From: Deltaproteobacteria bacterium
Lineage (GTDB): Bacteria; Myxococcota_A; Polyangia; Haliangiales; Haliangiaceae
Direction: 5' to 3'
Length of the DNA stretch: 33,798 nucleotides
Assembly: GCA_013812655.1 (NCBI GenBank)
Contig: JACCTC010000377.1
Span: 1-33,798, forward strand
Shown: one piece after another, positions 3,448 to 33,573 of the stretch
How positions within the stretch are numbered: position 1 is the first letter of the stretch
Layout of the letters: each line of letters begins with the position of its first letter
Translations under genes and position numbers: made by a program
The notes under the pieces: model-generated
Told to the model about the DNA's origin: nothing
Database searches by the model: none
Seen by the model: only the letters and a program-made list of their open reading frames with translations

Positions 3448-3454
3448 CGCACCT

Positions 3455-3460
3455 ATCGTA
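3455..3460 (-). promoter_or_regulatory. Probable -10 element for the lipoprotein-hisD-hisC operon
   Basis: TACGAT on the minus strand ends 7 bases before the GTG start at 3447, so transcription would begin at or within a base or two of the start codon (leaderless). The same hexamer stands 17 bases behind a TTTACA box at 31984-32012, which supports its reading as a -10 element. I see no good -35 box here. Confidence 0.5.
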
Positions 3461-3489
3461 CCGCGTTCGACCGTCGGTGGCGTCTGTCG

Positions 3490-3518
3490 TTGACACCGCA
3501 GCCTCGGTCGCTGAATAG
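3490..3518 (+). promoter_or_regulatory. Probable sigma-70-type promoter of metK
   Basis: A perfect TTGACA (3490-3495) is followed by a 17-base spacer and the weaker hexamer GAATAG (3513-3518). Transcription would start near 3525, leaving only about five bases before the metK ATG at 3530, and no Shine-Dalgarno sequence is present. The spacing is ideal but the -10 box is poor. Confidence 0.5.
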
Positions 3519-3529
3519 TCCGACTACCC

Positions 3530-4789
3530 ATGGCCAGCTACCTGTTCTCCAGTGAATCCGTCACCGAAGGTCACCCTGACAAGCTGTGCGACGCCGTGTC
3601 CGACACGATCGTCGACGCTTGCTTCGCGGTCGATCCGACCAGCCGCGTTGCCTGCGAGACCGTGGCGAAGACCGGCTTCGTGCTCGTCTGCGGCGAGATC
3701 ACGACCAAGGCGCAGCTCGACTTCCAGAAGCTCGTGCGCGGCGCGGTTCGCGACATCGGCTTCACCAGCTCGCAGATGGGCTTCGATGCCGACACCTGCG
3801 CGGTGATGGTCGCGATCGACCAGCAGTCGCCCGACATCGCCCAGGGCGTCGATCGCGGTGATCCCGCGAAGCAGGGCGCCGGCGATCAGGGCCTGATGTT
3901 CGGCTACGCGTGCGACGAGACCAAGGAGCTGATGCCGCTGCCGATCCAGCTGGCGCACCAGCTCGCGCACAAGCTCGCCGAGGTTCGCAAGAAGAAGACG
4001 AAGGGCGTCGACTGGCTGCGCCCCGATGGCAAGACCCAGGTCTCGGTCCGCTACGAGGATGGCGAGGTCACCGGCATCGAGGCGATCGTCGTCTCGACGC
4101 AGCATGACGACAAGGTCAAGCACAAGACGATCGAGGAGGCGATCCGCGAGCTCGTGATCAAGCCCGTCCTCCCCGCGAAGCTGATCACCAACAAGACCAA
4201 GTTCCACGTGAACCCGACGGGTCGCTTCGTGATCGGTGGGCCGCAGGGCGACACCGGCCTCACCGGCCGCAAGATCATCGTCGACACCTACGGCGGTTAC
4301 GCGCGTCATGGCGGCGGTGCCTTCTCGGGCAAGGATCCGAGCAAGGTCGATCGCTCGGCCGCGTACTACGCGCGCTACATCGCCAAGCACGTCGTCGCCG
4401 CGGGCCTCGCCCGTCGCTGCGAGGTTCAGTTCGCGTACGCCATCGGCGTCGCCGAGCCGGTCTCGATGCTGGTCGACACGTTCGGCACCGGCTCGTTCTC
4501 CGACGATCAGCTCACCAAGGCCGTGCTCGCGACGTTCGACGCGCGCCCCGGCATGCTGATCAAGGAGCTCGACCTGCGCCGCCCGATCTTCCGCCAGACC
4601 GCGGCCTATGGCCACTTCGGCCGCGAGCTGCCGGACTTCACGTGGGAGAAGACGCCGCACATCGAGAAGCTCAAGGAAGCCGCGCGCGCCGGGACCAACG
4701 GTCACGCGGTCACCGGCAACGGCAAGGCTTCGAAGGCCAAGCCGGCCGCCGGCAAGAAGCCCGGCAAGTCCGCCACCGTCAGCGCGTAA
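3530..4789 (+). CDS. metK: S-adenosylmethionine synthetase (methionine adenosyltransferase)
   Basis: MetK forms S-adenosylmethionine from ATP and methionine and supplies the methyl donor of the cell. All key motifs are present: EGHPDK at 13-18 with the catalytic-site His, the GAGDQG hexapeptide at 116-121, and the glycine-rich P-loop-like GGGAFSGKD at 261-269. The enzyme core ends near residue 390. A tail of roughly 30 residues rich in Lys, Ala and Gly follows and is absent from typical ~385-residue enzymes. The ATG start is fixed by the universal SYLFTSESV-like N-terminus. No SAM riboswitch fits in the 82-base upstream gap. The gene is transcribed alone, divergently from the his operon, and ends at a hairpin at 4809-4830. 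Confidence 0.98.
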
Positions 4790-4808
4790 CCGTCACGCGT
4801 CCGACCTC

Positions 4809-4830
4809 CGAGGCACCTCCGGGTGCCTCG
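4809..4830 (+). terminator. Hairpin terminator after metK
   Basis: A perfect 9-base-pair stem, CGAGGCACC / GGTGCCTCG with a TCCG tetraloop, starts 19 bases after the metK stop. It is followed by ACTTCGTTTC, which is T-containing but not a full T-tract. It is the strongest stem-loop I found between genes in the window. Confidence 0.7.
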
Positions 4831-4909
4831 ACTTCGTTTCGGACTCGGGTTTCGGGGTCGTGATCGAAGTCTCGGTTCGCGCGACGCGATCCGTGCCATG
4901 GTCGAGGCG

Positions 4910-7633
4910 ATGCGCTGCGTGGGTCTTGCTGCGATCCTGCTGACCGCGTCGGCGGCGCATGCGTTCGTGCCGGAGCCTGGCGATCGCGATGACGGTGTCG
5001 TGGTCGCGAGCGGGTCAAGCGTGCGGCGCGCGCGGGCCGTCGAGGCGATGGCGCCGGATCCCGCGGGCTGGCGGCGGCTGCGCGATCGCGACACCGGAGT
5101 GGTGACCCAGCTGTGGGGCGGTCACGTCGATGTCCCCGGGGCGACGCGGGATCCCGTGCTCGCCGAGCGTGCTGCCCGCGCGTTCCTCGCCGCGCACCTC
5201 GCCGAGCTCGCGCCCGGTGCGCGTCTCGAGGATCTCGTGCTGGCGTCGAACCGGCTCGACGGCGCGCTGCGCACCGTCGCGTTCTTTCAGACCGCGCACG
5301 GCCTGCGCGTCGTCGGTGGTCAGCTGCACGTCGTGATCGGTCACGACCGGCTGTTCGTCGCGACGTCGGCGGCACTGCCCGACGTCCGGGTCTCGCTGCC
5401 GCGCGCGCGCCAGGCCGGATCGCTCGCGCGCACGACCGCGTGGTTGCGCAACGCGACCACCGCCGCGATCACGCTGCGTACGACTGGCGAGCGCGTGATC
5501 ATCCCGCTGGTACGCGGTCCCGGCGATGTCTCGTACGCGGTCGCCGATGTCGTCGATGCGACGGCGGGACACGACCGATGGACCGTGTATGTGGCGCCCG
5601 ATGGTGCGCCGATCCTGCGCGCGAGCCGCCATCATCACGCGACCGCAGCGCTGCGCTACGACGTCGGCGAACGCTACGCGAGTGGCACGCGCGCCGCCGC
5701 GAACGCCGTGCGCGCCACGATCACGGTCGATGGCGCCGCGACGACGACCGCAGCGGACGGGACGTTCAGCTGGCCGACCGCGACGAGCGCAACGGTGATC
5801 CCCGGGCTCGCCGGCGCCGTCGTCCAGATCATCAACGAGGCCGGGGCACTCGCGACCGCGACGTTGACCGCGCAGCCCGGCGTCCCCGTGGTGTGGAGCA
5901 TGGCCGGCAACGAGCTCGCGGATGCCCAGCTCTCGGCATACGTCTACGGCAGCATCGCGAAGGCGGCGGGCGCGCGCATGCACCCGGGCCTCGCGTGGCT
6001 CGAGCAACCACTCGAGATCCACGTCAACATCGACGACACGTGCAACGCGTTCTCGACGGGCGACGCGATCTTCTTCTTCCGCGGCGATTCACTGTGCCAG
6101 AACACCGCGCGGCTCGCGGACGTCGTGCACCACGAGTTCGGCCACTCGTTTCACCAGCAGTCGATCATCGAGGGCGCGGGCGCGATGGACGCGTCGACCG
6201 TCGAGGGTATCGCTGACTTCTTCGCGGCGACGATCACGAACGACTCCGGCATCGGCCGCGGCTTCTTCTACACCGACGACGCCGTGCGCGAGCTCGACCC
6301 GCTCGGCAACGAGCGCGCGTACCCGCGTGACCTCAGCCCGACCTCGCACGTCACCGGGCTCATCATCGGCGGCGCGCTGTGGGATCTCCGCAAGCAGCTG
6401 ATCGGCAAGCTCGGCACACCGGCCGGGATCGCCGCGGCGGAGAAGATCTTCGTCGGCATCCTCCAGCGCGCGGGCGATCTGACCGAAACATATGTCTCCG
6501 CGCTCACCGCCGACGACGACGACAGCAACCTCGGGAACGGCACGCCGAACAGCTGCATCATCGAGAGCGCGTTCGGCCGCCACGGGCTCGCCGGCGCGAA
6601 TTTCCAGGCGACCACGATCGCGCCGCCGGTTGTCGACGGCACCACGGTGTCGCTGGCGGTCACGACGCCGACCGGGACCGCGTGCCCGCCCGCCGCGGTC
6701 ACCGGCATGACGCTGTGGTGGGCTACCGGCGTCGACGAGCCAGTCGCGCTCCCTATGACGGCTCAGGGGGGAACCTGGTCCGCGACGATCCCGACGCCGC
6801 CCGACGGCACGGTGATCAGCTACCGGGTCGTCGCGACGCTCGATAACGCCGAGTCGATCGCCTACCCCGACAACCCCGCCGATCCGATGTACCAGCTGTT
6901 CGTCGGTACCGCGACGCCGATCTGGTGCGAGCGCCTCGACACCGATCCGATGTGGCAGCAGACCGGCGCGATCGAGTGGGACGTCGCGCTGCCGAACCCG
7001 GTCAACGCCGCCGCCGGCGATCCACCGGCCCCCTACGACGGGCCCGCGATGCTCGGCACCGATCTGCGCGGCGACGGCCGATATCGCCCCGACATCATGA
7101 CCGCGATCACGACGCCGCCGATCGATGCATCCCGCTATGGCCGCGTCCACCTGCAGTTCCGCCGCTGGCTCACGATCGAGGACGCCGGCCTCGACGTCGC
7201 CACCATCCGGGTCAACACCGCGCAGGTGTGGGCGAACGCGGGCACGCCGGCACGTACGCTCGATCACGTCGACAAGGAGTGGCGGTTCGTCGATCTCGAC
7301 GTCACGCCGTATGCCGCCGCACCGTTCACGATCCAGTGGACACTCGCGAGCGATCCGACCCGCAACCTCGGTGGCTGGAACCTCGACGAGATCTGCGTCG
7401 TCGGCCTCGACAAACATCCGCTGTGCGGCGACGGCATCATCGATCCCGGCGAGGCGTGCGACGACGCCAACGTCGACGACGACGATGGCTGCTCGGCGAT
7501 CTGCGCCGACGAGGCGTCCGATGACGGCGGTTGCTGCTCGACCGGCACCGGCGGCAACGATCCGACGGGACCATTGCTGCTGGGCCTCGGCCTGCTCGCC
7601 GTCGCGCGTCCCCGGCGTCGCCGCCGTCGCTGA
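4910..7633 (+). CDS. Secreted zinc metalloprotease with FTP-like propeptide and MYXO-CTERM tail
   Basis: This is a 907-residue exported protein. The N-terminus MRCVGLAAILLTASAAHA is a signal peptide. Residues ~45-175 resemble an FTP (fungalysin/thermolysin propeptide) region. The zinc site is HEFGH at 408-412, with a downstream EGIAD Glu at 432 as probable third ligand, as in gluzincins of the M4/M36 type. A beta-rich region follows. Near the C-terminus lies a Myxo-type cysteine-rich repeat (CGDGIIDPGEACDDAN...), then a CC motif, a short hydrophobic helix and RPRRRRRR, matching the MYXO-CTERM sorting tail. The protein is therefore likely surface-anchored or released after processing. I chose the ATG at 4910 over that at 4898 because CATGGT lies 7 bases before it, as at the thiolase gene; both give a usable signal peptide. 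Confidence 0.88.
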   Translation: MRCVGLAAILLTASAAHAFVPEPGDRDDGVVVASGSSVRRARAVEAMAPDPAGWRRLRDRDTGVVTQLWGGHVDVPGATRDPVLAERAARAFLAAHLAELAPGARLEDLVLASNRLDGALRTVAFFQTAHGLRVVGGQLHVVIGHDRLFVATSAALPDVRVSLPRARQAGSLARTTAWLRNATTAAITLRTTGERVIIPLVRGPGDVSYAVADVVDATAGHDRWTVYVAPDGAPILRASRHHHATAALRYDVGERYASGTRAAANAVRATITVDGAATTTAADGTFSWPTATSATVIPGLAGAVVQIINEAGALATATLTAQPGVPVVWSMAGNELADAQLSAYVYGSIAKAAGARMHPGLAWLEQPLEIHVNIDDTCNAFSTGDAIFFFRGDSLCQNTARLADVVHHEFGHSFHQQSIIEGAGAMDASTVEGIADFFAATITNDSGIGRGFFYTDDAVRELDPLGNERAYPRDLSPTSHVTGLIIGGALWDLRKQLIGKLGTPAGIAAAEKIFVGILQRAGDLTETYVSALTADDDDSNLGNGTPNSCIIESAFGRHGLAGANFQATTIAPPVVDGTTVSLAVTTPTGTACPPAAVTGMTLWWATGVDEPVALPMTAQGGTWSATIPTPPDGTVISYRVVATLDNAESIAYPDNPADPMYQLFVGTATPIWCERLDTDPMWQQTGAIEWDVALPNPVNAAAGDPPAPYDGPAMLGTDLRGDGRYRPDIMTAITTPPIDASRYGRVHLQFRRWLTIEDAGLDVATIRVNTAQVWANAGTPARTLDHVDKEWRFVDLDVTPYAAAPFTIQWTLASDPTRNLGGWNLDEICVVGLDKHPLCGDGIIDPGEACDDANVDDDDGCSAICADEASDDGGCCSTGTGGNDPTGPLLLGLGLLAVARPRRRRRR

Positions 7634-7669
7634 TCGGCGTGCTGATCGCACGGCCGGCGCGTCCCGCGA

Positions 7670-7675
7670 TAAGCT
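7670..7675 (+). promoter_or_regulatory. Probable -10 element (TAAGCT) for the membrane protein
   Basis: TAAGCT ends 6 bases before the TTG at 7682. The same hexamer lies 6 and 7 bases before the starts at 13445 and 21257. No -35 box is evident. It supports the TTG start over the ATG at 7715. Confidence 0.4.
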
Positions 7676-7681
7676 GGTGCC

Positions 7682-8203
7682 TTGCTCGCGCGCATCAAGA
7701 TTCCTCCCGAGGCCATGATCCCGCTGGCGATTGCGGCGGTCGCGCTGCTCGTCCTGATCTTCTTCGGCAGCAAGCTCGCCGACTGGAAGCGCCGCGCACC
7801 GGAAGCGTCCGCGACTTTCGGGCTCGCCGCCGCGGGTGTGCTGACCTCGTGCGCGGTGTTCTTCCTGCTGAGCTGCGTGACGAACCAGTCCGATCCGAAC
7901 AACCGGATCGCAAATCTGACGAACATCAACTTCACCGACGCGCCGGTCGCGGGTGGTATGGCGCTGCTCGCCGTCGTGTTCTACCGCTACGCGAACCAGC
8001 GCCTCGTCGCGCTGCTGATCGGCGTCGGCATCGCCGTGTTGATGTTCGCGAAGCCCTTCGTGTGGCCGGTTCTCAGCATCACCGACACCGGCTCCTGGCC
8101 ACGCGACCATGACGACCCCGAGCACCTGATGTTCTTCGGCCCGGCGATCGCGATCGCCATCGCGACGATCATCGCAGTCACCCGCAAGCCCAAGCTCCGC
8201 TAG
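7682..8203 (+). CDS. Small integral membrane protein, function unknown
   Basis: A 173-residue protein with about five hydrophobic segments: ~12-30, 44-65, 88-104, 107-130 and 148-167. The loop around 66-86 is polar (TNQSDPNNRIANLTN), and the C-terminus is basic (RKPKLR). I recognise no family. The start is either TTG 7682, preceded by TAAGCT at 6 bases, or ATG 7715, preceded by GAGG only 2 bases away; the membrane topology is the same in both. It follows the metalloprotease by 48 bases on the same strand. Its TAG stop shares the palindrome CTAG with the stop of the convergent cytochrome gene, so the two genes end on the same four bases. Confidence 0.72.
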   Translation: MLARIKIPPEAMIPLAIAAVALLVLIFFGSKLADWKRRAPEASATFGLAAAGVLTSCAVFFLLSCVTNQSDPNNRIANLTNINFTDAPVAGGMALLAVVFYRYANQRLVALLIGVGIAVLMFAKPFVWPVLSITDTGSWPRDHDDPEHLMFFGPAIAIAIATIIAVTRKPKLR

Positions 8204-12484: not shown

Positions 12485-12973
12485 TCAGTGAACGAGCTGG
12501 GACCGCTTGTTCGCGAGCGTGCGCTCGAGGCGCGCGCCGTCCTTGTCGGTCTCCGAGCGGATGCCGAAGTAGACCTTGGGGCCGCGCGGGTCGTCGGTGA
12601 TCGTCAGCTTGAGATCGAACGGCTCGGGGCCATCGACGTTCTCGATGCGGAACTCGCTGGTGACCTTCTCCTTGGTCTCGGGCAGCACGAATCTGATCTG
12701 ACCCTCGGTCGTCTCGAACATGAACAGCTCGAACGTGCCCTTGAACAGCGTACGGTCCTGGAACACGCCGCCGCCCATGCTCGGCACGAAGCGATAGACG
12801 TGGAGCCGATCGCGATCGTTCTCGGGCATCTTGTCGAGCCAGTTGCGATCGAGCAGCAGTGTCCTCGCCTCGTCGGGCGGGACCGCACGCGACGGCGTTC
12901 CGGACGATGACGACGAGCAGGCACCGGCCGCGAGGCCGAGCACGAACAGGAACGAGAGCACGATCGGGCGCAT
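12485..12973 (-). CDS. Small putative lipoprotein
   Basis: 162 residues. The N-terminus MRPIVLSFLFVLGLAAGAC is a lipoprotein signal with Cys19 followed by a Ser-rich linker. The mature part alternates hydrophobic and charged residues, with RLHVYRFVP, FELFMFETTEGQIRFVLPE and FDLKLTITDD. This fits a small beta-barrel or lipocalin-like fold, but I cannot assign a family. The ATG at 12971-12973 is chosen because it begins the signal sequence. TACGGT 7 bases upstream (12981-12986) suggests its own leaderless promoter, although it also lies 29 bases behind the roadblock-like gene and could be cotranscribed. Confidence 0.75.
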   Translation of the reverse strand: MRPIVLSFLFVLGLAAGACSSSSSGTPSRAVPPDEARTLLLDRNWLDKMPENDRDRLHVYRFVPSMGGGVFQDRTLFKGTFELFMFETTEGQIRFVLPETKEKVTSEFRIENVDGPEPFDLKLTITDDPRGPKVYFGIRSETDKDGARLERTLANKRSQLVH

Positions 12974-12980
12974 GGGCCGA

Positions 12981-12986
12981 ACCGTA
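12981..12986 (-). promoter_or_regulatory. Probable -10 element (TACGGT) for the small lipoprotein
   Basis: TACGGT ends 7 bases before the ATG at 12973. The same hexamer precedes the gene starting at 16703. No Shine-Dalgarno sequence and no clear -35 box are seen. Confidence 0.42.
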
Positions 12987-13002: not shown

Positions 13003-13377
13003 CTAGACCGCGAGGATCCGGAGCGCGCCCGCGGCGCCCCGCGTGATCTGGCGGCGCCGTGCCTCGGCCGTGCCGCCGACCGCGCACACGAGAAGCTCGG
13101 AGCCCTCGATCTCGACCTTCATCATCTGGACGTCCCAGTGATGGCCGGCCCCGAACAGCGTGCCGTTGAACTCCTTGATGCGAGTCCCGACCAGCACCAT
13201 CCTGGCCGCCACCTCGTCACACGCGAACGTGTCCCCCGACGAGGCGAGCGGCAGGCCATCGCCGTCCGCGACCACCATGGCTTCGATTCGCCCCTCTTCA
13301 CAGCAGGTGGCGAGCTGATAACGGAGAGCTTGCGTGGCCGTGTTGGCGCGACGGCGCCGGCGTTCGAGGGTGCGCAT
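13003..13377 (-). CDS. Roadblock/LC7-like small protein
   Basis: 124 residues. A basic N-terminus (MRTLERRRRRAN) precedes a helix, then GRIEAMVVADGDGLPLASSGD, a strand-turn-strand that resembles roadblock/LC7 domains, where a sequence like GVEGALVVDRDGLPLAS is typical. A second strand pair follows (VQMMKVEIEGSELLVCAVGG) and a C-terminal helix. In myxobacteria such proteins often accompany small GTPases or kinases, but no GTPase gene lies next to this one. The start is the ATG at 13375-13377; no Shine-Dalgarno sequence is visible. It stands divergent to the peptidase gene at 13445 and 29 bases before the small lipoprotein. The family call is moderate. Confidence 0.6.
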   Translation of the reverse strand: MRTLERRRRRANTATQALRYQLATCCEEGRIEAMVVADGDGLPLASSGDTFACDEVAARMVLVGTRIKEFNGTLFGAGHHWDVQMMKVEIEGSELLVCAVGGTAEARRRQITRGAAGALRILAV

Positions 13378-13432
13378 AACGAATCGTCACGGCCTGTCAC
13401 GTCGGGGGCAAGATTTTGCGCAGCGCGTGTCC

Positions 13433-13438
13433 TAAGCT
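13433..13438 (+). promoter_or_regulatory. Probable -10 element (TAAGCT) for the DPP-IV-like peptidase
   Basis: TAAGCT ends exactly 6 bases before the GTG at 13445, which would place the transcription start on the start codon. The six bases between are GCCCCC, so there is no ribosome binding site. Confidence 0.45.
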
Positions 13439-13444
13439 GCCCCC

Positions 13445-15640
13445 GTGAAGGCGCGTCTACTCGCTCGCGCTGCGCTCGCGCTGGCCGTCCTGACCTCCTG
13501 CCATCCAACCAAGCCCATGACGCCGACCTGGCCCGCCCTCGATGACAAGCTCCTCGCCGACGCCGCGGCGACCTTCAACTTCAAGCTCGGCGTCCCTGCC
13601 CCGCTCGCGGTGACCCGCGATGGCGCGGTGCTGTTTCGCAGCACGCCACCGCGCGCGTTCGTCTCGGATCTCTACGAGCTCGGCGCGGACGGCAAGGTCA
13701 GGACGCTCGCGACCGTTGCCGAGCTGCTCGGCACGACCGCGGAGATCCTGTCCGATGCCGAGAAGGCGCGTCGCGAGCGCTCCCGCACGGCGACCCGCGG
13801 GATCGTCGACATCGACGTCTCCGAGGACGGCGCGACCGTCATGGTGCCGCTCGGCGGGATGTTTCACCTGATCGATCGATCCAGCGGCAAGCGCGTCGTC
13901 GTCGATCCGAAGGGCGCGGCCTACGATCCGCACCTGTCGCCGGATGGCAGCACGGTCGCGTTCGTGCGCGATGGCGACCTCTGGCTCGCGAGCGCCGGTA
14001 GCGCGCCGCGCCAGCTCACGAAGCACCCCCCCAACGTCGAGTACGGCATCGCCGAGTTCGCGGCCATGGAGGAGCTCGGCCGCCGCCGCGGTTTCTGGTG
14101 GTCTCCCGACAGCAAGGCGATCGCGTTCCAGCGCACCGACGCGCGCGCGGTCGACACGCTCTACGTCGCCGATGCCCGGCATCCCGACAAGAAACCGGTT
14201 CCCTTCAAGTATCCGCGCGCCGGCACCGCGAACGCCGTCGTCGATCTCGGCGTGGTCAACATCGCCGGCGATGGAACGCCACGCTGGCTGACCTGGGACC
14301 TCGCGAAGCACGGCTACCTCGCGGCGGTGACCTGGCCGAAGCACGGCGCATTGACCGCGCTCGTCCTCGATCGCGATCAGACCGAGCTCGCGCTGCTCGC
14401 GCTCGATCCGGCGACCGGCGCGACTCGCACGTTACTCACCGAGCGCGACGATGCGTGGCTCAACGTCAACGTCGGCGCACCGCAGTGGCTCGAGGATGGC
14501 TCCGGATTCTTGTGGATGACCGAGGCGGGTGGCGCGTGGGTCCTCGAGTTGCGTGACGCCGAGGGTGCGCTCGTCCGCGCGCTGACCACGCCGGAATTCG
14601 GGCTTCGCCACCTCGCGGGTGTCGATGGGCGCTTCGCGATCGTCGAGGCCTCGACCGACGGGCCGCGCCAGGACGTGTGGCGGATCCCGCTCGACGGCGG
14701 CTCGCCGACCCGGCTGTCGGGCGGCGATGGCCTGGCGAACGTCATCAAGGCCAAGCACGGCGTCGTCGTGATCGACGCGATGTTCGAGGCCGGTGGCCGT
14801 GAGTTCGTCGCGATCAGCTCGATCGGCCAGAGCCGACACCTCCTACCGATCGTCGCCGAGCGTCCGGCGCTCGAACCAACGACACGACTCGAGACCGTCG
14901 TGCTCGGCGGCCGCACGCACCACGTCGCCGTCACCCGGCCGCGCACGTTCGATCGCAACCGCCGCTATCCCGTGCTGCTCAAGGTCTACGGCGGTCCGCA
15001 TGTCGTGACCGTGACCGCGGCGCGCGACTCCTACGTCATGGACCAGTGGTACGCGGACGCCGGCTTCATCGTCGTGCGCAGCGATAACCGCGGCACCCCC
15101 AACCGCGGGCGCGCGTGGGAGCGCGCGATCCTGCGTGACCTCGTCACGGTCCCGCTCGACGATCAGGTCGGCGCGCTGCAAGCCCTCGGCGAGCGCCATC
15201 GCGAGCTCGATCTGTCGCGGGTCGGCATCATGGGCTGGTCGTTCGGCGGCTACCTGTCGGCGATGGCCGTGCTGCTGCGGCCCGATGTCTTCAAGGCCGC
15301 GGTGGCCGGCGCGCCGGTCACCGACTGGACGCTCTACGACACCGCGTACACCGAGCGCTACATGAAGACCCCGGCCGCGAACCCCGATGGCTATCGCGCG
15401 ACGAGCGCGCTGACCCATGCGGCCAAGCTCGACCGGCCGCTGCTCGTGATCCACGGCATCACCGACGACAACGTGCACTTCGCGCACACGCTCGCGCTGA
15501 TCGAGGCGCTCTACGTCGCGGGCAAGCGCGCCGAGGTGATCACGCTGTCGGCGACGCACATGGTTCCGGATCCGCGGCTCAACTTCGCGCGCGAGCAGGT
15601 GCAAGTCGACTTCTTCCGCCAGCACCTCGGCGGGTCTTGA
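13445..15640 (+). CDS. S9-family dipeptidyl peptidase (DPP-IV type) lipoprotein
   Basis: 731 residues. The N-terminus ends in the lipobox LTSC (Cys19), so the enzyme is probably anchored in the cell envelope. Residues ~40-470 form the beta-propeller. Within it AEFAAMEE near 201-208, followed by GFWWSPDSKAIAF, matches the double-Glu motif that binds the free N-terminus of substrates in DPP-IV enzymes. The catalytic alpha/beta-hydrolase domain has the triad Ser599 (GWSFGGY), Asp674 (HGITDDNVHF) and His705 (SATHMVP). It should remove dipeptides from oligopeptide N-termini. The GTG start is preceded at 6 bases by TAAGCT. Its TGA overlaps the TTG of the pseudouridine synthase gene. Confidence 0.93.
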   Translation: MKARLLARAALALAVLTSCHPTKPMTPTWPALDDKLLADAAATFNFKLGVPAPLAVTRDGAVLFRSTPPRAFVSDLYELGADGKVRTLATVAELLGTTAEILSDAEKARRERSRTATRGIVDIDVSEDGATVMVPLGGMFHLIDRSSGKRVVVDPKGAAYDPHLSPDGSTVAFVRDGDLWLASAGSAPRQLTKHPPNVEYGIAEFAAMEELGRRRGFWWSPDSKAIAFQRTDARAVDTLYVADARHPDKKPVPFKYPRAGTANAVVDLGVVNIAGDGTPRWLTWDLAKHGYLAAVTWPKHGALTALVLDRDQTELALLALDPATGATRTLLTERDDAWLNVNVGAPQWLEDGSGFLWMTEAGGAWVLELRDAEGALVRALTTPEFGLRHLAGVDGRFAIVEASTDGPRQDVWRIPLDGGSPTRLSGGDGLANVIKAKHGVVVIDAMFEAGGREFVAISSIGQSRHLLPIVAERPALEPTTRLETVVLGGRTHHVAVTRPRTFDRNRRYPVLLKVYGGPHVVTVTAARDSYVMDQWYADAGFIVVRSDNRGTPNRGRAWERAILRDLVTVPLDDQVGALQALGERHRELDLSRVGIMGWSFGGYLSAMAVLLRPDVFKAAVAGAPVTDWTLYDTAYTERYMKTPAANPDGYRATSALTHAAKLDRPLLVIHGITDDNVHFAHTLALIEALYVAGKRAEVITLSATHMVPDPRLNFAREQVQVDFFRQHLGGS

Positions 15641-16313: not shown

Positions 16314-16703
16314 GACGAGCGTGTCGTCGAGATCGCGCACGCTGGCGTCGAGCACGGCCCAGATGATCGAGGCGATCACGGTGGCAACCGCGTCCTGCTC
16401 GGCGGCGGTCAGCACGATCGGCAGCTCGTCGATCTGATCGCGGATCGAGCGCACCATCGCGCGATCGCAGCGCCCGCCACGGACCGCGGCCATCCCAGCC
16501 GCCAGCGCGTGATGATCGAGGCGCAGATCGCCGAGCGGCGTCCGGCCACCGAGCACGCGACACGCCAGCTCGAGCCCGGCCGCAAACGCGTCGCCATCGG
16601 GAGACGCGAGCTCCCGCTCGAGCAAGCGGATGACGCCCGGCTGGCGAATCGCGAGCCAGCTGACGTCGTGTTCGGCGAGCTCCGGATCACTGAAAGCGAA
16701 CAT
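16308..16703 (-). CDS. Conserved-looking hypothetical protein, mostly helical
   Basis: 131 residues, predicted mainly alpha-helical, with no signal peptide and no family I recognise. Notable parts are the N-terminus MFAFSDPELAEHDVSWLAIRQ, the segment GGRTPLGDLRLDHHALAAG near 52-70, and an acidic C-terminal helix ending DASVRDLDDTLVA. Codon use follows the GC-rich pattern of the neighbours, and the start region has a TACGGT box 5 bases before the ATG at 16701-16703, so I take it as a real gene. It is divergent to the thiolase gene and convergent to truC. Confidence 0.62.
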   Translation of the reverse strand: MFAFSDPELAEHDVSWLAIRQPGVIRLLERELASPDGDAFAAGLELACRVLGGRTPLGDLRLDHHALAAGMAAVRGGRCDRAMVRSIRDQIDELPIVLTAAEQDAVATVIASIIWAVLDASVRDLDDTLVA

Positions 16704-16708
16704 GTCCG

Positions 16709-16714
16709 ACCGTA
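16709..16714 (-). promoter_or_regulatory. Probable -10 element (TACGGT) for the helical protein
   Basis: TACGGT ends 5 bases before the ATG at 16703, at the short end of the spacing seen elsewhere in the window. Confidence 0.35.
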
Positions 16715-16747
16715 AGCAGCCTCGGTTCTCGTGCGCCAGTTTTCGGC

Positions 16748-16753
16748 TATGGT
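16748..16753 (+). promoter_or_regulatory. Probable -10 element (TATGGT) for the thiolase
   Basis: TATGGT ends 7 bases before the ATG at 16761 and contains the alternative upstream ATG (16749), so that alternative start would lie inside the promoter. A near copy, CATGGT, stands 7 bases before the metalloprotease ATG at 4910. Confidence 0.42.
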
Positions 16754-16760
16754 CCGGCAG

Positions 16761-17993
16761 ATGGTGTCGGGAACAACTCGCGCTGCATATCTCGTCGACG
16801 GCATCCGCTCGCCCTTCGGCCGGTACGGCGGCGGCCTCGGTGGCGTACGTGCCGATGATCTCGCAGGCCAGGTGATCGCGGCGCTCGTCGCGCGTACGCA
16901 GCTCCCGGTCGATCGAATCGACGACGTCATCCTCGGCTGCGCGAACCAGGCCGGCGAGGACAACCGCAACATCGCGCGGATGGCGGCGCTGCTCGCAGGG
17001 CTGCCGGTCGGCGTCCCCGGCGTCACCGTGAACCGGCTATGCGGCTCCGGGATGCAGGCCGTCGCCGATGCCGCGCGGTCGATCGCTGCAGGCGATGCGG
17101 ATCTCGTGATCGCCGGCGGTGTCGAGCACATGTCGCGCGCACCGCTCGTGATGGCGAAGCCGACCGAGGCGTTCGCCCGCGGCAACCAGACGATCTACGA
17201 CACCACGCTCGGCTGGCGCTTCGTCAATCCGCGGATGGAGGCGATGCACGGCACCCTGCCGATGGGCGAGACCGCGGAGCGGGTTGCCGAGCGCTGCAAC
17301 GTCTCGCGCGAGGCGCAGGATCGCTTCGCGCTGCAGTCGCAGCAGCGTGCGGGCAAGGCGATCGCATCGGGACGCGTCGCCCAGGAGCTGACGCCGATCA
17401 TGACCGGCACCGACAAGAAGACCGGTGTCGCGATCCAGCTGACCGCCGACGAGCACCCGCGACCGGACACCACGCCCGAGCAGCTCGCGAAGCTGCGGCC
17501 CGCGTTCGTCGCGAAAGGTTCGACCACCGGCTCGGTCACTGCTGGCAACGCGTCGGGCCTCAACGACGGGGCCGCCGTCCTGCTGATCGCCAGCGAGCAG
17601 GCGGTCAAGGAGCTCGGGCTCCGACCGCGAGCGCGATTTGTCACCGGCGCGGCCGCGGGAGTGGAGCCTAGCTACATGGGGCTCGGGCCGATCCCGGCGT
17701 CCAAGAAGGTCCTCACGCGCGCAGGTCTGACGCCGCAACAGGTCGAACTGGCTGAGGTAAACGAGGCCTTCGCCGCGCAAGCGATCCCGTGCATCGATCA
17801 GCTCGGCCTCGATCCGGAGCGGGTCAACGTCAACGGCGGAGCGATCGCCTGGGGTCATCCGCTCGGTGCGTCCGGAGCGCGTCTCCTACTTTCTCTCATG
17901 ATCGATCTGGAGCTGACTTCGCGCCGGATCGGCCTTGCGACGATGTGCATCGGCGTCGGGCAAGGAATCGCGGTCGTGCTCGAGCGTGCGTGA
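16761..17993 (+). CDS. Acetyl-CoA C-acyltransferase (thiolase)
   Basis: 410 residues. It catalyses thiolytic cleavage of 3-oxoacyl-CoA to acetyl-CoA and a shortened acyl-CoA, or the reverse condensation. The nucleophile is Cys94 in NRLCGSGMQA; the second active-site pair is His366 (NGGAIAWGHPLG) and Cys396 (LATMCIGVGQG). The sequence is close in character to PcaF/PaaJ 3-oxoadipyl-CoA thiolases (GCANQAGEDNRN, TTLGWRFVNPRM), but no aromatic-degradation gene is nearby, so a beta-oxidation or general role is equally possible. I chose the ATG at 16761 because longer starts add residues not usual in the family and because TATGGT lies 7 bases upstream. It stands alone on the plus strand, divergent to the gene at 16308. 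Confidence 0.94.
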   Translation: MVSGTTRAAYLVDGIRSPFGRYGGGLGGVRADDLAGQVIAALVARTQLPVDRIDDVILGCANQAGEDNRNIARMAALLAGLPVGVPGVTVNRLCGSGMQAVADAARSIAAGDADLVIAGGVEHMSRAPLVMAKPTEAFARGNQTIYDTTLGWRFVNPRMEAMHGTLPMGETAERVAERCNVSREAQDRFALQSQQRAGKAIASGRVAQELTPIMTGTDKKTGVAIQLTADEHPRPDTTPEQLAKLRPAFVAKGSTTGSVTAGNASGLNDGAAVLLIASEQAVKELGLRPRARFVTGAAAGVEPSYMGLGPIPASKKVLTRAGLTPQQVELAEVNEAFAAQAIPCIDQLGLDPERVNVNGGAIAWGHPLGASGARLLLSLMIDLELTSRRIGLATMCIGVGQGIAVVLERA

Positions 17994-21243: not shown

Positions 21244-21249
21244 TAAGCT
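21244..21249 (+). promoter_or_regulatory. Probable -10 element (TAAGCT) for the receiver protein
   Basis: TAAGCT ends 7 bases before the GTG at 21257, in the 77-base gap after the kinase gene. It suggests that the receiver gene can be transcribed on its own. Confidence 0.42.
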
Positions 21250-21256: not shown

Positions 21257-21667
21257 GTGGGAAGTATCTTGCTCGTCGAACCGGATCACGAAACCTGTGA
21301 TCGGTGGCAGACGGGGATCGGCGCGGAAGGTCACGCGGTCCTCTCGGCGGCGATGCACGACGCGCTTCCGCTGATCCGTGAAGGCGGCATCGATCTCGTG
21401 GTGATCGATTGCAGCGCGCAATGCAAGGGCGTCATCGAGCTCGCCCGTGGCATCCAGAGCTTGCCTGACGCGCCGCCGCTCGTGCTCGTGTCGGACTCGC
21501 CGGCCGCTCCCGAGATCTCCGTGCGGATCGGTGCCGTCTCGTTCCTCGCCAAGCCTTGCGAGCCCTCCGAGATTGTCGGCCTCGTGAATCGCTTGCTCGG
21601 CGCGCTGCGTCCGGTGCGCATGATCGACGACGACGAGCCGACCGGTCCAAACCGTACGTTCGGCTAA
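21257..21667 (+). CDS. Stand-alone response-regulator receiver domain
   Basis: 136 residues forming a single CheY-like receiver. The predicted phospho-acceptor is Asp51 (GIDLVVIDCS); the conserved Lys is Lys99 in FLAKPCEP; Ser79 (LVLVSDS) occupies the switch Thr/Ser place. The N-terminal acidic pocket reads LLVEPD, with Pro where the second Asp is usual, so metal binding may be weakened. No output domain follows; the tail (DDDEPTGPNRTFG) is short and acidic. The GTG start fits the family N-terminus GSILLVEPD and has TAAGCT 7 bases upstream. It follows the large Ser/Thr kinase and ends only 3 bases from the convergent pseudokinase gene. Confidence 0.82.
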   Translation: MGSILLVEPDHETCDRWQTGIGAEGHAVLSAAMHDALPLIREGGIDLVVIDCSAQCKGVIELARGIQSLPDAPPLVLVSDSPAAPEISVRIGAVSFLAKPCEPSEIVGLVNRLLGALRPVRMIDDDEPTGPNRTFG

Positions 21668-26196: not shown

Positions 26197-26253
26197 ACAG
26201 GATCGGCCCTCGCGAGCCATGTGCGGATCGCGAGTGGCTGCAAGGACTCGAAA

Positions 26254-26283
26254 ATTCTAGTGCCCAAACTGAGGCGTGCGCAA
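26254..26283 (-). promoter_or_regulatory. Probable sigma-70-type promoter of the FHA gene
   Basis: On the minus strand TTGCGC (26278-26283) is followed by an 18-base spacer and TAGAAT (26254-26259), a five-of-six match to the -10 consensus. Transcription would start near 26247, giving a leader of ~50 bases, unlike the leaderless starts elsewhere in the window; the gene accordingly has a GAGGG ribosome-binding candidate. Confidence 0.5.
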
Positions 26284-28009: not shown

Positions 28010-30568
28010 GTGAGTACGGAGCGCGTGGGCCGCTACCAGCTCCTGGAGCCGATCGGTATCGGCCCCAGTGGTTCGGTATCGCGCGCCAAGGTGTTCGGGG
28101 TCGCCGGCTTCGAGCGCCAGTTCGCGGTCAAGCGATTCCACGCCGAGGTCACCACGAACAGCACGGCGGCGCAGGCGCTGTCGGCGGCCGCGCGTGCATA
28201 CGGCAGCCTCGAGCATCCACGGATCGCGCGCATGTCGGAGTTCGGCGTCGCGCAGGGGACGACGTTCACGGCGGTCGAGTTCGTCGCCGGGCTCGATGCG
28301 CTTCGCCTGATCGCCGAGGCCCGGCTCGCGGGCGGCACGCTCGCATTGGGCGGTGCACTCGCCCTCGTCTCGCAGGCGGCGCGCGCGATCGGCTACGCGC
28401 ACGGGCGCGGCCTCTCGCACCTCGGGCTGTCACCGACGAACGTGATCGTGACGAGCGAAGGCGACATCAAGATCACCGACTTCGGGATCCTGTCTGCCAC
28501 GCTGCCGCCACAGCCGATCAACAGCTCCCGCCTCGCGCATCGCCTGCAGTACCTGGCACCCGAGCAGCTCTCCGGCGAGGCGGCGTCGGCGGCGACCGAC
28601 GTGTTCGCGCTCGGCGTGCTCGCCTTCGAGCTCGTCACCGGGCAGCGAACGTTCGGTGGCGACACGCCCGCCCAGATCGCGCAGGCCGTGATGGCAGGCC
28701 CGCCGGCGGAACCGCCGTTGCCGCGGCCGATCGTGCGCGTGCTGCAGCGCTGCCTCGCACGCTCGCCCTTCGAGCGGTTTCCCGACGCCCGCGCGCTCGC
28801 CGATGCCCTCGACGCCGCGCTGCGGGTCGCGCCGGTCCCCGGCACGCGCAAGGACATCGGCGCGCAGGTCACGCAGACGCTCGAGCGCATGGCCGCGCTC
28901 AACGACGGCGAGCTCAGCGGCATGCTCGCCCTCGACATCGGCACCGGTCCAGTGCCCAAGCAGCCGGCGCGGCCGCAGCCATCTAGCGCGGCGCTCGGCC
29001 GTGAGACCCGCGAGTCGCGCGAGTCCCACGATAGCCTCGACCTCTCGTCGCTCGATCTGACCGAGCCGGGCTTCGGGCGCGCGATGCCAGCGGTGCGTGG
29101 CTCGGCGCCTCTCGCTGGACCTCCACGCGATCTGCCGCCGGCGAGCACGGTGCGAGAGCTGCGTCCGTTCTCGACGGCGCCCGGGCTTCCACCGCCTCCG
29201 ATCCCGGTGCCGCCAGGGGTCGCCAGCCCACCGGACATCGCGTTCCCGGAGGGTCCGGCCTCGACCGAAACGCTGATCGGGATCCAGCACGTGAAGCCGG
29301 CGCCACCGCCCGCCGCGATCGGCCGGATCGCGACCGCGAAGGTTCCGCGCATGATCCCGAGCGTCCCGAACGTGCCGTTGCCACGCGCGACGACCGACAG
29401 CGAGACGTTCCTCGGCGGCGAGATCCCCGGCCTGACAACGATGCCCTCGCGCGCGGCGCCCAGCGACGCCGAGCTGCCCGCGGTGAAAGGGCGCCGCACG
29501 CCGTATCCCGAAGGCTCGAAGACGAACGAGATGGCACCCATCGTCGTCGAGCAGCTCAAGGCCGACGCCACGAAGCCCACCGCCGAGCTCCAGGCGATGA
29601 AGACCGATGGCGGACTTGCCGACCTCGACGACAGCTCGCAGCCGCTCGTGCCGGTGTCGCTCGCCGCGCGGGCGTTCTCGGCATCCGCGAGCTCGAAGAA
29701 GACGCCGGTGCCGACGACGCTGGCCGGCGTACTGCCACCATCGCGCTCCGGGCCGATCACGGCCGCGCCGCCACCGACTGGCTCGATTCCGATCGCGAGC
29801 ACACCGCCGCCGCTGCCGCCGCCGATCCACGTGGTCCCGCGAAGGCACAAGCCGCAGAACCGCAGCCGCGTGCCGTGGATCCTCGCGGGCTTGCTCGGCC
29901 TCGGCGTGCTCGGGCTCGGCGGCTGGTTCGCCTATCGCGAATTCGTCGTCACGCCGACGACCATCGCCGGGTCGGGCTCGGAACGCGTCGTCATCGCGAC
30001 GCCTGATGCTGCGATCGCGACCGCACCGACCGATGCTGCAGTCGCCACCGGGCCTGTCGCAGACGCTGCCGCGAAGCCGGCAGCTGCCGATGCCGCGGTT
30101 GCGAGCGCGCCACCCGATGCCAGCGCGCCGGTCGCGCCGCCGAGTGACTCGCTGACGATCACCTCGACGCCGAAGGGCGCCCGGGTCTTCCTCGACGGCT
30201 CGGATGCCGGCGTCACGCCGCTCAAGCTGCCGGGTACGCCGGATCGTCACACGATCGCGCTCTTGCTACCGAACCACGAGCTCTACGTCGCGCAGGTCGA
30301 CGGCCAGGGCACGTTCTCGATCCCGCTGAAGGAGGTGACGCCCACCGGCGGCCCCGCGGGCATCAAGGTCATCAAGTGCAAGGACAAGGACCGCTACTAC
30401 GTGTTCGTCGACGGCAAGCCGACGGGCATGACGTGTCCGACCGAGCGCATCGAGACCGATCTCGGTCCGCACGTCGTCGAGATCTATGACGTCGTGTCCG
30501 AGACTCGCAAGAAGTTCGAGATCGAGGTCAAGGACACCCGGCTGTCGTACCGCGTGAAGATCGAATAG
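28010..30568 (+). CDS. Membrane-anchored kinase-like protein lacking the catalytic Asp, with PEGA repeats
   Basis: 852 residues. The kinase-like domain spans ~8-275: loop GIGPSGSVSRAK, Lys41 (AVKRF), DFG at 157-159, APE at 183-185. The catalytic loop reads HLGLSPTN from His137, with Gly139 where the catalytic Asp belongs, so phosphotransfer is doubtful. A long Pro-rich linker (~290-610) follows, then a transmembrane helix at ~621-645, an Ala/Asp-rich stretch, and PEGA-type beta repeats beginning near 714 (STPKGARVFLDGSDAGVTPL) and 784 (YVFVDGKPTGM). PEGA domains usually lie outside the membrane and bind surface structures. The GTG at 28010 is chosen because the kinase fold starts at once; upstream in-frame codons lie antisense to the WGR-like gene. 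It is convergent to the sigma-54 activator gene. Confidence 0.92.
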   Translation: MSTERVGRYQLLEPIGIGPSGSVSRAKVFGVAGFERQFAVKRFHAEVTTNSTAAQALSAAARAYGSLEHPRIARMSEFGVAQGTTFTAVEFVAGLDALRLIAEARLAGGTLALGGALALVSQAARAIGYAHGRGLSHLGLSPTNVIVTSEGDIKITDFGILSATLPPQPINSSRLAHRLQYLAPEQLSGEAASAATDVFALGVLAFELVTGQRTFGGDTPAQIAQAVMAGPPAEPPLPRPIVRVLQRCLARSPFERFPDARALADALDAALRVAPVPGTRKDIGAQVTQTLERMAALNDGELSGMLALDIGTGPVPKQPARPQPSSAALGRETRESRESHDSLDLSSLDLTEPGFGRAMPAVRGSAPLAGPPRDLPPASTVRELRPFSTAPGLPPPPIPVPPGVASPPDIAFPEGPASTETLIGIQHVKPAPPPAAIGRIATAKVPRMIPSVPNVPLPRATTDSETFLGGEIPGLTTMPSRAAPSDAELPAVKGRRTPYPEGSKTNEMAPIVVEQLKADATKPTAELQAMKTDGGLADLDDSSQPLVPVSLAARAFSASASSKKTPVPTTLAGVLPPSRSGPITAAPPPTGSIPIASTPPPLPPPIHVVPRRHKPQNRSRVPWILAGLLGLGVLGLGGWFAYREFVVTPTTIAGSGSERVVIATPDAAIATAPTDAAVATGPVADAAAKPAAADAAVASAPPDASAPVAPPSDSLTITSTPKGARVFLDGSDAGVTPLKLPGTPDRHTIALLLPNHELYVAQVDGQGTFSIPLKEVTPTGGPAGIKVIKCKDKDRYYVFVDGKPTGMTCPTERIETDLGPHVVEIYDVVSETRKKFEIEVKDTRLSYRVKIE

Positions 30569-30589
30569 CGCGCGACGCTCGGCGACTGA

Positions 30590-31966
<1,377 letters not shown>

Positions 31967-31983
31967 CTCGAACCGGCCCGGCC

Positions 31984-32012
31984 ATCGTAGCCGCCGCTTT
32001 GCGCGGTGTAAA
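31984..32012 (-). promoter_or_regulatory. Promoter of the sigma-54 activator gene (TTTACA-N17-TACGAT)
   Basis: On the minus strand TTTACA (32007-32012) matches five of six -35 bases, with an exact 17-base spacer and TACGAT (31984-31989) as -10. Transcription would start ~11 bases before the ATG at 31966. It is the best two-box promoter in the window and anchors the reading of TACGAT as a -10 element elsewhere. Confidence 0.6.
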
Positions 32013-32021
32013 TACGCCTGG

Positions 32022-33548
32022 CTACTTGCCTTGCTGCACGGCGACGTCAGGTCCTGACATCGCGACGATCATGGCGGCGACCCCGGCGAGGAGCAGGATC
32101 GCCAGGATCACCATCCAGGGCCGCAGCTTGCTCTTGCGGCGTGCCGCGGAGGTTGCCCGGCGCGGCTTCTGCTTCGATGCCCGAGCTGGGGTTGGAATCG
32201 GCCCAGGCGGCGTGCTCGGGAAGCGCTGCGGCAAGCTCGCGATCAGCTCGTCGGGGTTCGGGGTCGCGGAGCGACCACTCGACGGCTGGAACGGTCCCGA
32301 ATCGATCAGCCGCGGGCCCGAGTCGAGACGCGGTCCGGCATCGAGATCGACGAGCGGCTTGGCGCCGTCGCTGCCTTCGAGATCGATCATGTTGATGAGC
32401 GAGGTCAGCTCGACGCCGTTGAACTTGCCGATCTCGGTCTTGGGCCGCAGCTGGTTCGCCTTCGCGGCGATCGAGTGGATCGAGACCGGGCCGATCGGCG
32501 GCGACGCGTAGTCGATATCCTCGTCATCGAGCTCTTCCTCGTCACCGGCGGCGTCGTAGACCTCGGTGCCGGCGCGCGGCACGTATCCGAAGTCCTCGTC
32601 GTCCTCGTCGGCGCGCCACTGATCGATCGGACCGCAGGTCTCGAGCAGCTCCTGCGCGAGCTCGGGTGCGGACATCAGGAGGCCATGGCGATGCGCGCAG
32701 CGATTCAGCGCCTCCTGGAACTCGCCGGCGGTCTGGTAGCGCTTGTCGGGATCGATCGCGAGCGACTTGGTGACGATCGCGTCCAAATCGGTCGTCAGCC
32801 CCTGCACCTTGCGCGACACCAGCGGCACCGGCTGCGAGTAGATCTCGTCGGCGGACGTCGTGATGCCCGCGTGCACGAACAGTCGCTCGCCGGTCAGGAT
32901 CTCGTAGAGGCACACCGCGAGCGAATACAGATCCGAGCGGTGATCGAGCGGCTCGCTCTTCGCCTGCTCGGGCGACATGTACCCGATCTTTCCCTTCACC
33001 TTGTAGAAGAGCGAGTTGTGCGTCGCGGCCTTCGCGATCCCGAAGTCGGTCAGCTTGACCTCGCCGGCATAGGACACGAGCACGTTCGACGGCGAGACGT
33101 CGCGATGGATCAGCTTGAGCGGCTTGCCGTCGAAGTCGCGCTTGACGTGCGCGTAGGCGAGCGCGGACAGCACCTCGCGGCTGATCCGGATCGCCGCGGC
33201 CGGCGAGAACCGCTTGCCGCGCCGCTTCGCACGGCGGAGCAACGTGCGGAGATCGCCGCCCGGCAGGTACTCCATGACGATGAAGTACTCACCGCCCGCG
33301 GTGACCAGATCGATCGTGTGGACGATGTTCGCGTGATCGAGCGTCGCGGACAGCTTCGCCTCGCGCAAGAAGAGGTCGATGAACTCCTCCTGCTGCGTGA
33401 ACTCCGGCAGCAGCTGCTTGAGCACGACCTCCATCTCGAAGCCGCCCGCGCCGAGCTTCTTGCCGACGTAGATCGCGCCCATCCCGCCCTCGGACAGGTG
33501 CTCGAGGACGACATATCGATCGATGGGTGCGCCCCCGACATCGACCAT
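32022..33548 (-). CDS. Membrane-anchored Ser/Thr protein kinase (PknB-type)
   Basis: 508 residues with a complete kinase domain at ~12-285: glycine loop SEGGMGAIYVG at 19-29, Lys44 (VVLKQLL), HRDVSPSN at 148-155 (Asp150), DFG at 168-170, SPE at 192-194 in place of APE, and SDLYSLAVCLYEILTG. After it come an acidic segment (DEDDEDFG..., EEELDDEDIDY), a Pro/Ser/Asp-rich linker, a basic stretch and one transmembrane helix near 478-499 (WMVILAILLLAGVAAMIVA), leaving only ~9 residues outside. It is thus tail-anchored with the kinase in the cytoplasm and no sensor domain outside. The ATG at 33546-33548 begins right before the domain. The gene is divergent, with a 25-base gap, from the FliJ/YscO-like gene and is followed by the FHA sigma-54 activator. 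Confidence 0.95.
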   Translation of the reverse strand: MVDVGGAPIDRYVVLEHLSEGGMGAIYVGKKLGAGGFEMEVVLKQLLPEFTQQEEFIDLFLREAKLSATLDHANIVHTIDLVTAGGEYFIVMEYLPGGDLRTLLRRAKRRGKRFSPAAAIRISREVLSALAYAHVKRDFDGKPLKLIHRDVSPSNVLVSYAGEVKLTDFGIAKAATHNSLFYKVKGKIGYMSPEQAKSEPLDHRSDLYSLAVCLYEILTGERLFVHAGITTSADEIYSQPVPLVSRKVQGLTTDLDAIVTKSLAIDPDKRYQTAGEFQEALNRCAHRHGLLMSAPELAQELLETCGPIDQWRADEDDEDFGYVPRAGTEVYDAAGDEEELDDEDIDYASPPIGPVSIHSIAAKANQLRPKTEIGKFNGVELTSLINMIDLEGSDGAKPLVDLDAGPRLDSGPRLIDSGPFQPSSGRSATPNPDELIASLPQRFPSTPPGPIPTPARASKQKPRRATSAARRKSKLRPWMVILAILLLAGVAAMIVAMSGPDVAVQQGK

Positions 33549-33556
33549 GAACGCGC

Positions 33557-33566
33557 AGTGTAACAT
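33557..33566. promoter_or_regulatory. Overlapping divergent -10 elements
   Basis: The 10-base sequence AGTGTAACAT reads as TACACT on the minus strand (33557-33562, 8 bases before the kinase ATG at 33548) and as TAACAT on the plus strand (33561-33566, 7 bases before the GTG at 33574). The two boxes share the TA at 33561-33562. If both are used, polymerase can occupy only one at a time. Confidence 0.48.
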
Positions 33567-33573
33567 CCCCGAC

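What the first reader, a model, noticed from the sequence alone, without database searches (positions are those of the whole stretch)
3448..33573. Recurrent TANNNT box 5-8 bases before start codons: widespread leaderless transcription
Seen directly: ten of about nineteen first genes have TANNNT ending 5-8 bases before the start. They are TACGAT/3447, TAAGCT/7682, TACGGT/12973, TAAGCT/13445, TACGGT/16703, TATGGT/16761, TAAGCT/21257, TACATT/28010, TACACT/33548 and TAACAT/33574. Four more differ at one of the three fixed bases (CATGGT/4910, TACGAA/25247, TAGTGC/12332, GACGAT/13377). In DNA this GC-rich a random match in that narrow window should be rare (roughly 1-2 per 100 starts by base composition). 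Most of these starts have no Shine-Dalgarno sequence and no clear -35 box. Known from Actinobacteria and Deinococcus: TANNNT at this distance marks leaderless mRNAs. Widespread use in a myxobacterium-like genome appears little described, as far as I know.
Basis: partly seen in the sequence, partly recalled or inferred. Interest (0 to 1): 0.72.

Follow-up and report, generated by a model that had tools for sequence, protein, structure and literature searches.

The report
Widespread leaderless promoters in soil bacterium
Roughly a quarter of the genes that need their own promoter in this myxobacterium-like genome carry the promoter box directly in front of the start codon, so their messages probably begin at the first codon with no leader; this is real and strong here, but it is a known way of starting genes.

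Summary
In detail: all ten TANNNT boxes lie 5-8 bases before the quoted starts. The box behaves as a promoter -10, not a translation signal: 89 of 284 divergent starts but 1 of 113 overlapping operon-internal starts, with a TGn extension and weak -35; Shine-Dalgarno words run the other way. In same-genus orthologs it is kept in 59 of 71 rows for window genes that have it, 4 of 67 for those that do not. Best explanation: leaderless mRNAs from extended -10 promoters. Not new in kind: Zheng 2011 reported leaderless genes in 8 of 33 delta-Proteobacteria genomes. The family has the largest excess per Mb in a 236-genome phylum sample, and the signal is patchy there. No 5' ends were mapped.

The parts
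3455..3460 (-). TACGAT -10 box, 7 bases before GTG start at 3447
   Evidence: TANNNT in 3 of 3 ortholog rows
7670..7675 (+). TAAGCT -10 box, 6 bases before TTG start at 7682
   Evidence: no ortholog row found
12981..12986 (-). TACGGT -10 box, 7 bases before ATG start at 12973
   Evidence: TANNNT in 13 of 13 ortholog rows while upstream pairwise identity is 0.34
13433..13438 (+). TAAGCT -10 box, 6 bases before GTG start at 13445 (S9 peptidase)
   Evidence: TANNNT in 7 of 14 ortholog rows
16709..16714 (-). TACGGT -10 box, 5 bases before ATG start at 16703
   Evidence: TANNNT in 12 of 14 ortholog rows
16748..16753 (+). TATGGT -10 box, 7 bases before ATG start at 16761 (thiolase)
   Evidence: TANNNT in 11 of 13 ortholog rows
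21244..21249 (+). TAAGCT -10 box, 7 bases before GTG start at 21257 (response-regulator receiver domain)
   Evidence: TANNNT in 10 of 10 ortholog rows, all at the corresponding start codon
27996..28001 (+). TACATT -10 box, 8 bases before GTG start at 28010 (protein kinase with PEGA domain)
   Evidence: TANNNT 9 bases before a start in 2 of 3 ortholog rows, 10 in the third
33557..33562 (-). TACACT -10 box, 8 bases before ATG start at 33548 (protein kinase)
   Evidence: TANNNT in 1 of 1 ortholog row
33561..33566 (+). TAACAT -10 box, 7 bases before GTG start at 33574 (gene cut by the contig end); shares two bases with the box on the other strand
   Evidence: no ortholog test made
13383..13388 (-). 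GACGAT, variant -10, 5 bases before ATG at 13377
   Evidence: 0 of 14 ortholog rows have TANNNT; TTGCCC, 17-18 bases, GANNAT, 5-7 bases, ATG is found in 12 of the 19 fetched stretches L199-L217, one per genome
13406..13411 (-). TTGCCC, -35-like, 17 bases upstream of GACGAT
   Evidence: as above

Best explanation
The boxes are -10 elements of housekeeping-type (sigma-70 family) promoters, often with a TGn extension and mostly without a good -35 box. They sit 5-8 bases before the start codon, so RNA polymerase starts the transcript on, or within about three bases of, the first base of the start codon. The mRNA is leaderless or nearly so and is translated without a Shine-Dalgarno contact. About a quarter of genes that need their own promoter work this way in this genome; Shine-Dalgarno words are commonest at overlapping operon-internal genes. 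Shown: a position-locked, frame-locked, promoter-position-dependent, conserved box. Inferred: that it is the -10 actually used, that 5' ends lie at the start codon, that the sigma factor is the housekeeping one, and that ribosomes initiate there.
For: Position: TANNNT at distances 5, 6, 7, 8, 9 is seen in 7, 32, 22, 14, 14 of 575 first genes, against a mean of 2.0 per position at distances 14-39. Frame: at distances 5-9, 162 hits at 1827 in-frame ATG/GTG candidates against 14 at 1650 candidates in the two other frames (sums mine). Shuffles: 158 of 562 genes against mean 27.7, sd 5.2, maximum 41 in 30 shuffles. Whole genome, spacing 6-7 against phase-matched 18-19: 900 v 277 for ATG and 817 v 474 for GTG. 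Promoter-like: divergent 89 of 284, tandem gaps >=100 41 of 178, 50-99 24 of 85, 20-49 28 of 87, 0-19 12 of 76, overlapping 1 of 113, contig-edge 4 of 15; G at -2 is 58% and T at -3 32% (background 33% and 16%); TTG at spacers 16-18 in 20 of 199 against about 4 expected from the nine other spacers scanned (expectation mine). Not SD: 12 of 199 box starts have an SD-like word, 898 of 8910 internal codons do, and 45 of 112 overlapping starts without the box do. Conservation: 59 of 71 against 4 of 67 ortholog rows (sums mine) where the upstream pairwise identity is 0.34-0.51 for the four genes checked. Named genomes: Thermoleophilia MAG 245 v 16, Enterobacter 2570 v 2537, B. subtilis 2923 v 2780.
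Against: No transcript data. The -35 signal is weak. The tool's reversed-pattern control is less favourable: 517 for ATG, and 1637 for GTG, more than the 817 observed; I set it aside because it is equally high at spacing 18-19 (452 for ATG; 1639 for GTG) and is a different word. 13445 keeps TANNNT in only 7 of 14 orthologs. Distances 8-9 are also filled (31 and 27 of 199), so some messages may have leaders of 1-3 bases. Ortholog rows come from one genus and are not independent, and two genes without the box (27122, 4910) also have ortholog rows with it. Scanning several candidate starts inflates raw counts, hence the frame and shuffle controls. The fixed bases show identity 1.0 by construction.
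Confidence: 0.9

Rival explanations
1. The TANNNT box is a translation signal on the mRNA (read by the ribosome or a ribosomal protein), not a promoter.
For: It is locked to the start codon as a ribosome-binding site is.
Against: 1 of 113 overlapping operon-internal genes has it although all need translation, while SD-like words are commonest there (45 of 112 without the box); it has a TGn extension and a TTG signal at 16-18 bases.
Confidence: 0.04
2. Ordinary leadered promoters: the box is a real -10, but the true start codon lies further downstream and the adjacent ATG/GTG is not used.
For: My caller picked other starts for several window genes, e.g. 21353 instead of 21257 and 13517 instead of 13445.
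Against: The excess is specific to in-frame ATG/GTG, with little or none for TTG, CTG or ATT/ATC/ATA; for 21257 all 10 ortholog rows start at the corresponding codon next to the box, with similar first codons.
Confidence: 0.05
3. Chance matches picked by a reader who was free to choose starts.
Against: 158 of 562 observed; 59 of 71 against 4 of 67 in orthologs.
Confidence: 0.01

Closest known systems
Leaderless genes with TANNNT -10 in Actinobacteria (e.g. Mycobacterium tuberculosis, Streptomyces)
   Same: TANNNT next to the start, no SD, SD-led genes alongside (Zheng 2011 section 7; M. tuberculosis TSS paper PMC3898074 seen only in a search listing). A Thermoleophilia MAG gave 245 v 16 in my pattern test.
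   Different: Other phylum; ratio here 3.2 rather than 15; no 5' ends mapped here.
-10 motif adjacent to ORFs in Deinococcus-Thermus (Zhong 2025, PMC12340547; passages and section 11 read)
   Same: Box a few bases before the ORF, in about 30% of ORFs there; tested there as a promoter, with a -35 region enhancing expression.
   Different: Experimental proof there, only sequence evidence here.
delta-Proteobacteria leaderless genes predicted by Zheng 2011 (PMC3160421; passages and section 7 read)
   Same: 8 of 33 delta genomes with leaderless genes, mean 15.8% (5.7-20.6); TAnnnT form described for high-GC groups.
   Different: The passages I read do not name the eight genomes; that they are largely myxobacteria is my inference.

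Membership tests
Leaderless gene class with start-adjacent -10 (Actinobacteria/Deinococcus type) | TANNNT at a fixed 5-8 bases before the start codon, above chance, genome-wide | tested here: met
   on 1.07 Mb; on the whole genome
Leaderless gene class with start-adjacent -10 (Actinobacteria/Deinococcus type) | No Shine-Dalgarno enrichment at these starts | tested here: met
   12 of 199, against 898 of 8910 at internal codons
Leaderless gene class with start-adjacent -10 (Actinobacteria/Deinococcus type) | Box occurs where a promoter is needed, not inside operons | tested here: met
   89 of 284 divergent against 1 of 113 overlapping tandem genes
Leaderless gene class with start-adjacent -10 (Actinobacteria/Deinococcus type) | Box conserved in orthologs next to the start | tested here: met
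   59 of 71 ortholog rows over eight window genes, one genus only; weak for 13445 (7 of 14)
Leaderless gene class with start-adjacent -10 (Actinobacteria/Deinococcus type) | mRNA 5' end at the start codon | not testable with these tools
   needs dRNA-seq or Cappable-seq
Leaderless gene class with start-adjacent -10 (Actinobacteria/Deinococcus type) | Box recognised by the housekeeping sigma factor | not testable with these tools
   only the sequence form (TGnTANNNT, weak TTG at 16-18) points that way
Classical leadered sigma-70 promoter | -35 and -10 followed by a 5' UTR holding an SD | tested here: not met
   box 5-9 bases from the start leaves no room; SD-like word 12 of 199; TTG at 16-18 in 20 of 199

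The most novel reading that the evidence does not exclude
Within this one phylum, start-adjacent leaderless -10 promoters range from nearly absent to a main route for first genes, even among families of similar background. The window's family, relying mostly on an extended -10 with little -35, lies at the top. The trait would then have been gained or lost repeatedly at family level: a natural experiment on what makes a genome leaderless.
Probability: 0.45. Interest if true: 0.5.

Novelty: new member of a known kind. Interest (0 to 1): 0.36.

Why it matters
Gene starts in such genomes can be misplaced by callers that do not model the box, as my own caller seems to have done at some window genes. 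The box gives candidate promoters and 5' ends for uncultured species without RNA data, and the patchiness across the phylum offers a comparison of relatives with and without leaderless use.

Tried and rejected
Reversed-pattern control of the genome search: set aside as the main control because it is a different word and drifts with composition (e.g. G219 309 v 516; for GTG in the own genome 817 v 1637); replaced by the phase-matched spacing 18-19.

Shared divergent promoters: both genes carry the box in 16 of 143 divergent pairs, against 13.8 expected if independent, so there is no special coupling; compact pairs are noted in passing.

Near-miss boxes: CANNNT 1.03 and GANNNT 1.05 fold, TANNNA/G/C 1.71-1.85 fold, TANNNT 9.0 fold at distances 6-7 against phase-matched distances; not counted.

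Naming the organism: the one genome-contig scan, spent on the thiolase, returned 80 loci and none titled as a myxobacterium, and no 16S match was found in this assembly. 'Myxobacterium-like' rests on GC, genome size and kinase, FHA, PEGA and sigma-54-activator content and is my inference.

Literature: the listings (20 of 51 papers shown; 10 of 77 shown; 10 of 18 shown) held no title on transcript starts of leaderless genes in a myxobacterium; this covers only the held library and the rows shown. The GeneMarkS-2 paper was not held; its figure of 21.6% of bacterial species comes from passages of the StartLink paper PMC9581028.

Labels recalled and not from a call: extended -10 (TGn), -35 TTG, the SD words used.
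Full report
What was claimed and whether it is there. Searches show them at the stated places and spacings. The window (33,798 bases, GC 0.696) is contig C115 of an 8.125 Mb, 508-contig genome.

Is it more than chance? I took 79 stretches of the genome besides the window (a further one that repeats the window was dropped), 1.07 Mb in all, and called 909 genes with a self-trained caller that knows nothing of promoter boxes. In 575 first genes (divergent, or gap of at least 50) TANNNT peaks 6 and 7 bases before the predicted start (32 and 22 genes; 7, 14 and 14 at 5, 8 and 9) against a mean of 2.0 per position at distances 14-39. Because the caller misplaces some starts, I scanned all in-frame ATG/GTG from -150 to +90 in 562 first genes: 162 hits at distances 5-9 at 1827 candidates in the coding frame, 14 at 1650 candidates in the two other frames (my sums). 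TTG, CTG and ATT/ATC/ATA show little or no such peak. By gene, 158 of 562 carry the box, against a mean of 27.7 (sd 5.2, maximum 41) in 30 dinucleotide shuffles: 28% gross, about 23% net. Over the whole genome, spacing 6-7 exceeds the phase-matched spacing 18-19 by 900 to 277 for ATG and 817 to 474 for GTG, 966 sites in excess at these two spacings. The tool's own reversed-pattern control gave 517 for ATG and 1637 for GTG; the latter exceeds the observed count. It is just as high at spacing 18-19 (452 and 1639) and is a different word, so I judge it uninformative for GTG, but it is not a control that the finding passes.

Promoter or ribosome signal? One search separates them over 838 genes. 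The box (5-9 bases before some in-frame ATG/GTG) is at 89 of 284 divergent starts; 41 of 178, 24 of 85 and 28 of 87 tandem starts with gaps >=100, 50-99 and 20-49; 12 of 76 with gaps 0-19; 1 of 113 overlapping; 4 of 15 at contig edges. SD-like words in genes without the box: divergent 36 of 195, gaps >=100 29 of 137, 50-99 13 of 61, 20-49 9 of 59, 0-19 19 of 64, overlapping 45 of 112. At box starts the count is 12 of 199, and at internal in-frame codons 898 of 8910. Aligned on the box (199 rows), the base two before it is G in 58% (background 33%) and the one before that T in 32% (background 16%), as in extended -10 promoters. TTG occurs at spacers 16, 17 and 18 in 9, 6 and 5 of 199, against 0-4 at each of nine other spacers, so a -35 exists but is weak. 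The three inner bases carry almost no information.

Conservation. Proteins of 23 window genes were matched to stretches of 15 same-genus genomes. Eight genes with the box and at least one row have TANNNT 5-9 bases before an in-frame start in 59 of 71 rows: 3447 3/3, 12973 13/13, 13445 7/14, 16703 12/14, 16761 11/13, 21257 10/10, 28010 2/3, 33548 1/1. Eleven genes without it have it in 4 of 67: metK 0/3, 4910 1/3, 13377 0/14, 15637 1/14, 18084 0/12, 24474 0/6, 25247 0/6, 26220 0/3, 27122 2/3, 27876 0/2, 31966 0/1. The same permissive scan served both groups. Four genes (7682 with the box; 10407, 12332 and 22486 without) gave no row. For four genes, pairwise identity at -30 to -11 from the box is 0.34, 0.51, 0.41 and 0.34. 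Rows within a genus are not independent.

Near-misses. 13377 has TANNNT in 0 of 14 orthologs, but TTGCCC, 17-18 bases, GANNAT, 5-7 bases, ATG is found in 12 of the 19 stretches fetched, one per genome, and in the window (10 with GACNAT). It is probably also a start-adjacent promoter with a variant -10. 25247 has TAC at the right distance in 5 of 6 ortholog rows without the final T (by eye). Genome-wide, CANNNT and GANNNT are not enriched (1.03 and 1.05 fold) and TANNNA/G/C weakly (1.71-1.85), against 9.0 for TANNNT.

How widespread. The two ATG patterns were counted in 236 genomes of the phylum (tabulated, completeness of the table checked). An excess with z above 5 is seen in 105 of 236 and a ratio above 1.5 in 97 of 236. 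The window's genome has the highest excess per Mb (76.7), the other sampled member of its family the next (75.4). By ratio it is not the highest: 3.25, against for example 4.78 in G231, 4.76 in G211 and 4.63 in G084. Families f16, f20 and f22, with backgrounds (28-44 per Mb, medians of the rows) like the own genome's 34, have median ratios of 1.22, 1.33 and 1.09. Over the 154 rows the ratio falls as the background rises (rho -0.82), the excess per Mb not significantly (rho -0.12, p 0.14). Among 30 named genomes six have a ratio above 1.5: a Thermoleophilia MAG (245 v 16), a Gemmatimonadetes MAG (263 v 101) and four Chloroflexi MAGs. Enterobacter, B. subtilis and Acinetobacter are within 6% of 1. 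Excess per Mb alone is a noisy measure in AT-rich genomes: a Bacteroidia MAG reaches 148.7 and an Anaerolineales MAG 76.2 at ratios of 1.24 and 1.12.

What is known. Zheng 2011 reported leaderless genes with a TAnnnT signal in high-GC groups, and in 8 of 33 delta-Proteobacteria genomes at a mean of 15.8% of genes (passages and section 7 read); that these were mostly myxobacteria is my inference. Zhong 2025 showed by experiment that a -10 next to the ORF is a promoter in Deinococcus (passages and section 11 read). [quoted passage not shown] The finding is thus a strong new member of a known kind.

Verdict. Observation confirmed; interpretation supported by sequence; mechanism inferred with high confidence; novelty modest.

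Noticed in passing
window 16704-16760: The 57-base divergent region between starts 16703(-) and 16761(+) holds CGCCAGTTTTCGGC directly before the + box; with the box TATGGT (one extra base allowed) it is found in 6 same-genus stretches besides the window. Possibly an operator or -35 region.
   Followed up: partly
window 13378-13444: TTGCCC-N17/18-GANNAT before 13377(-) kept in 12 same-genus genomes: a start-adjacent promoter with an unusual -10, facing the start at 13445(+).
   Followed up: partly
window 33549-33573; L002 8416-8446; L007 7529-7559: Very compact divergent box-bearing pairs, start codons 25-29 bases apart; in the window the two boxes overlap by two bases, so polymerases would exclude one another. 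Both-sided pairs are not more frequent than expected.
   Followed up: partly
window 26221-26265: CACTAGAATTTT upstream of 26220(-) is kept in 3 of 3 ortholog rows; in two of them TAGAAT lies 10 bases before an in-frame TTG.
   Followed up: no
L170 (G268), about 2272: The S9 peptidase ortholog has an in-frame stop between open stretches of 323 and 470 codons; pseudogene or assembly error.
   Followed up: no
G000: No 16S rRNA match in a 93.5% complete assembly.
   Followed up: no
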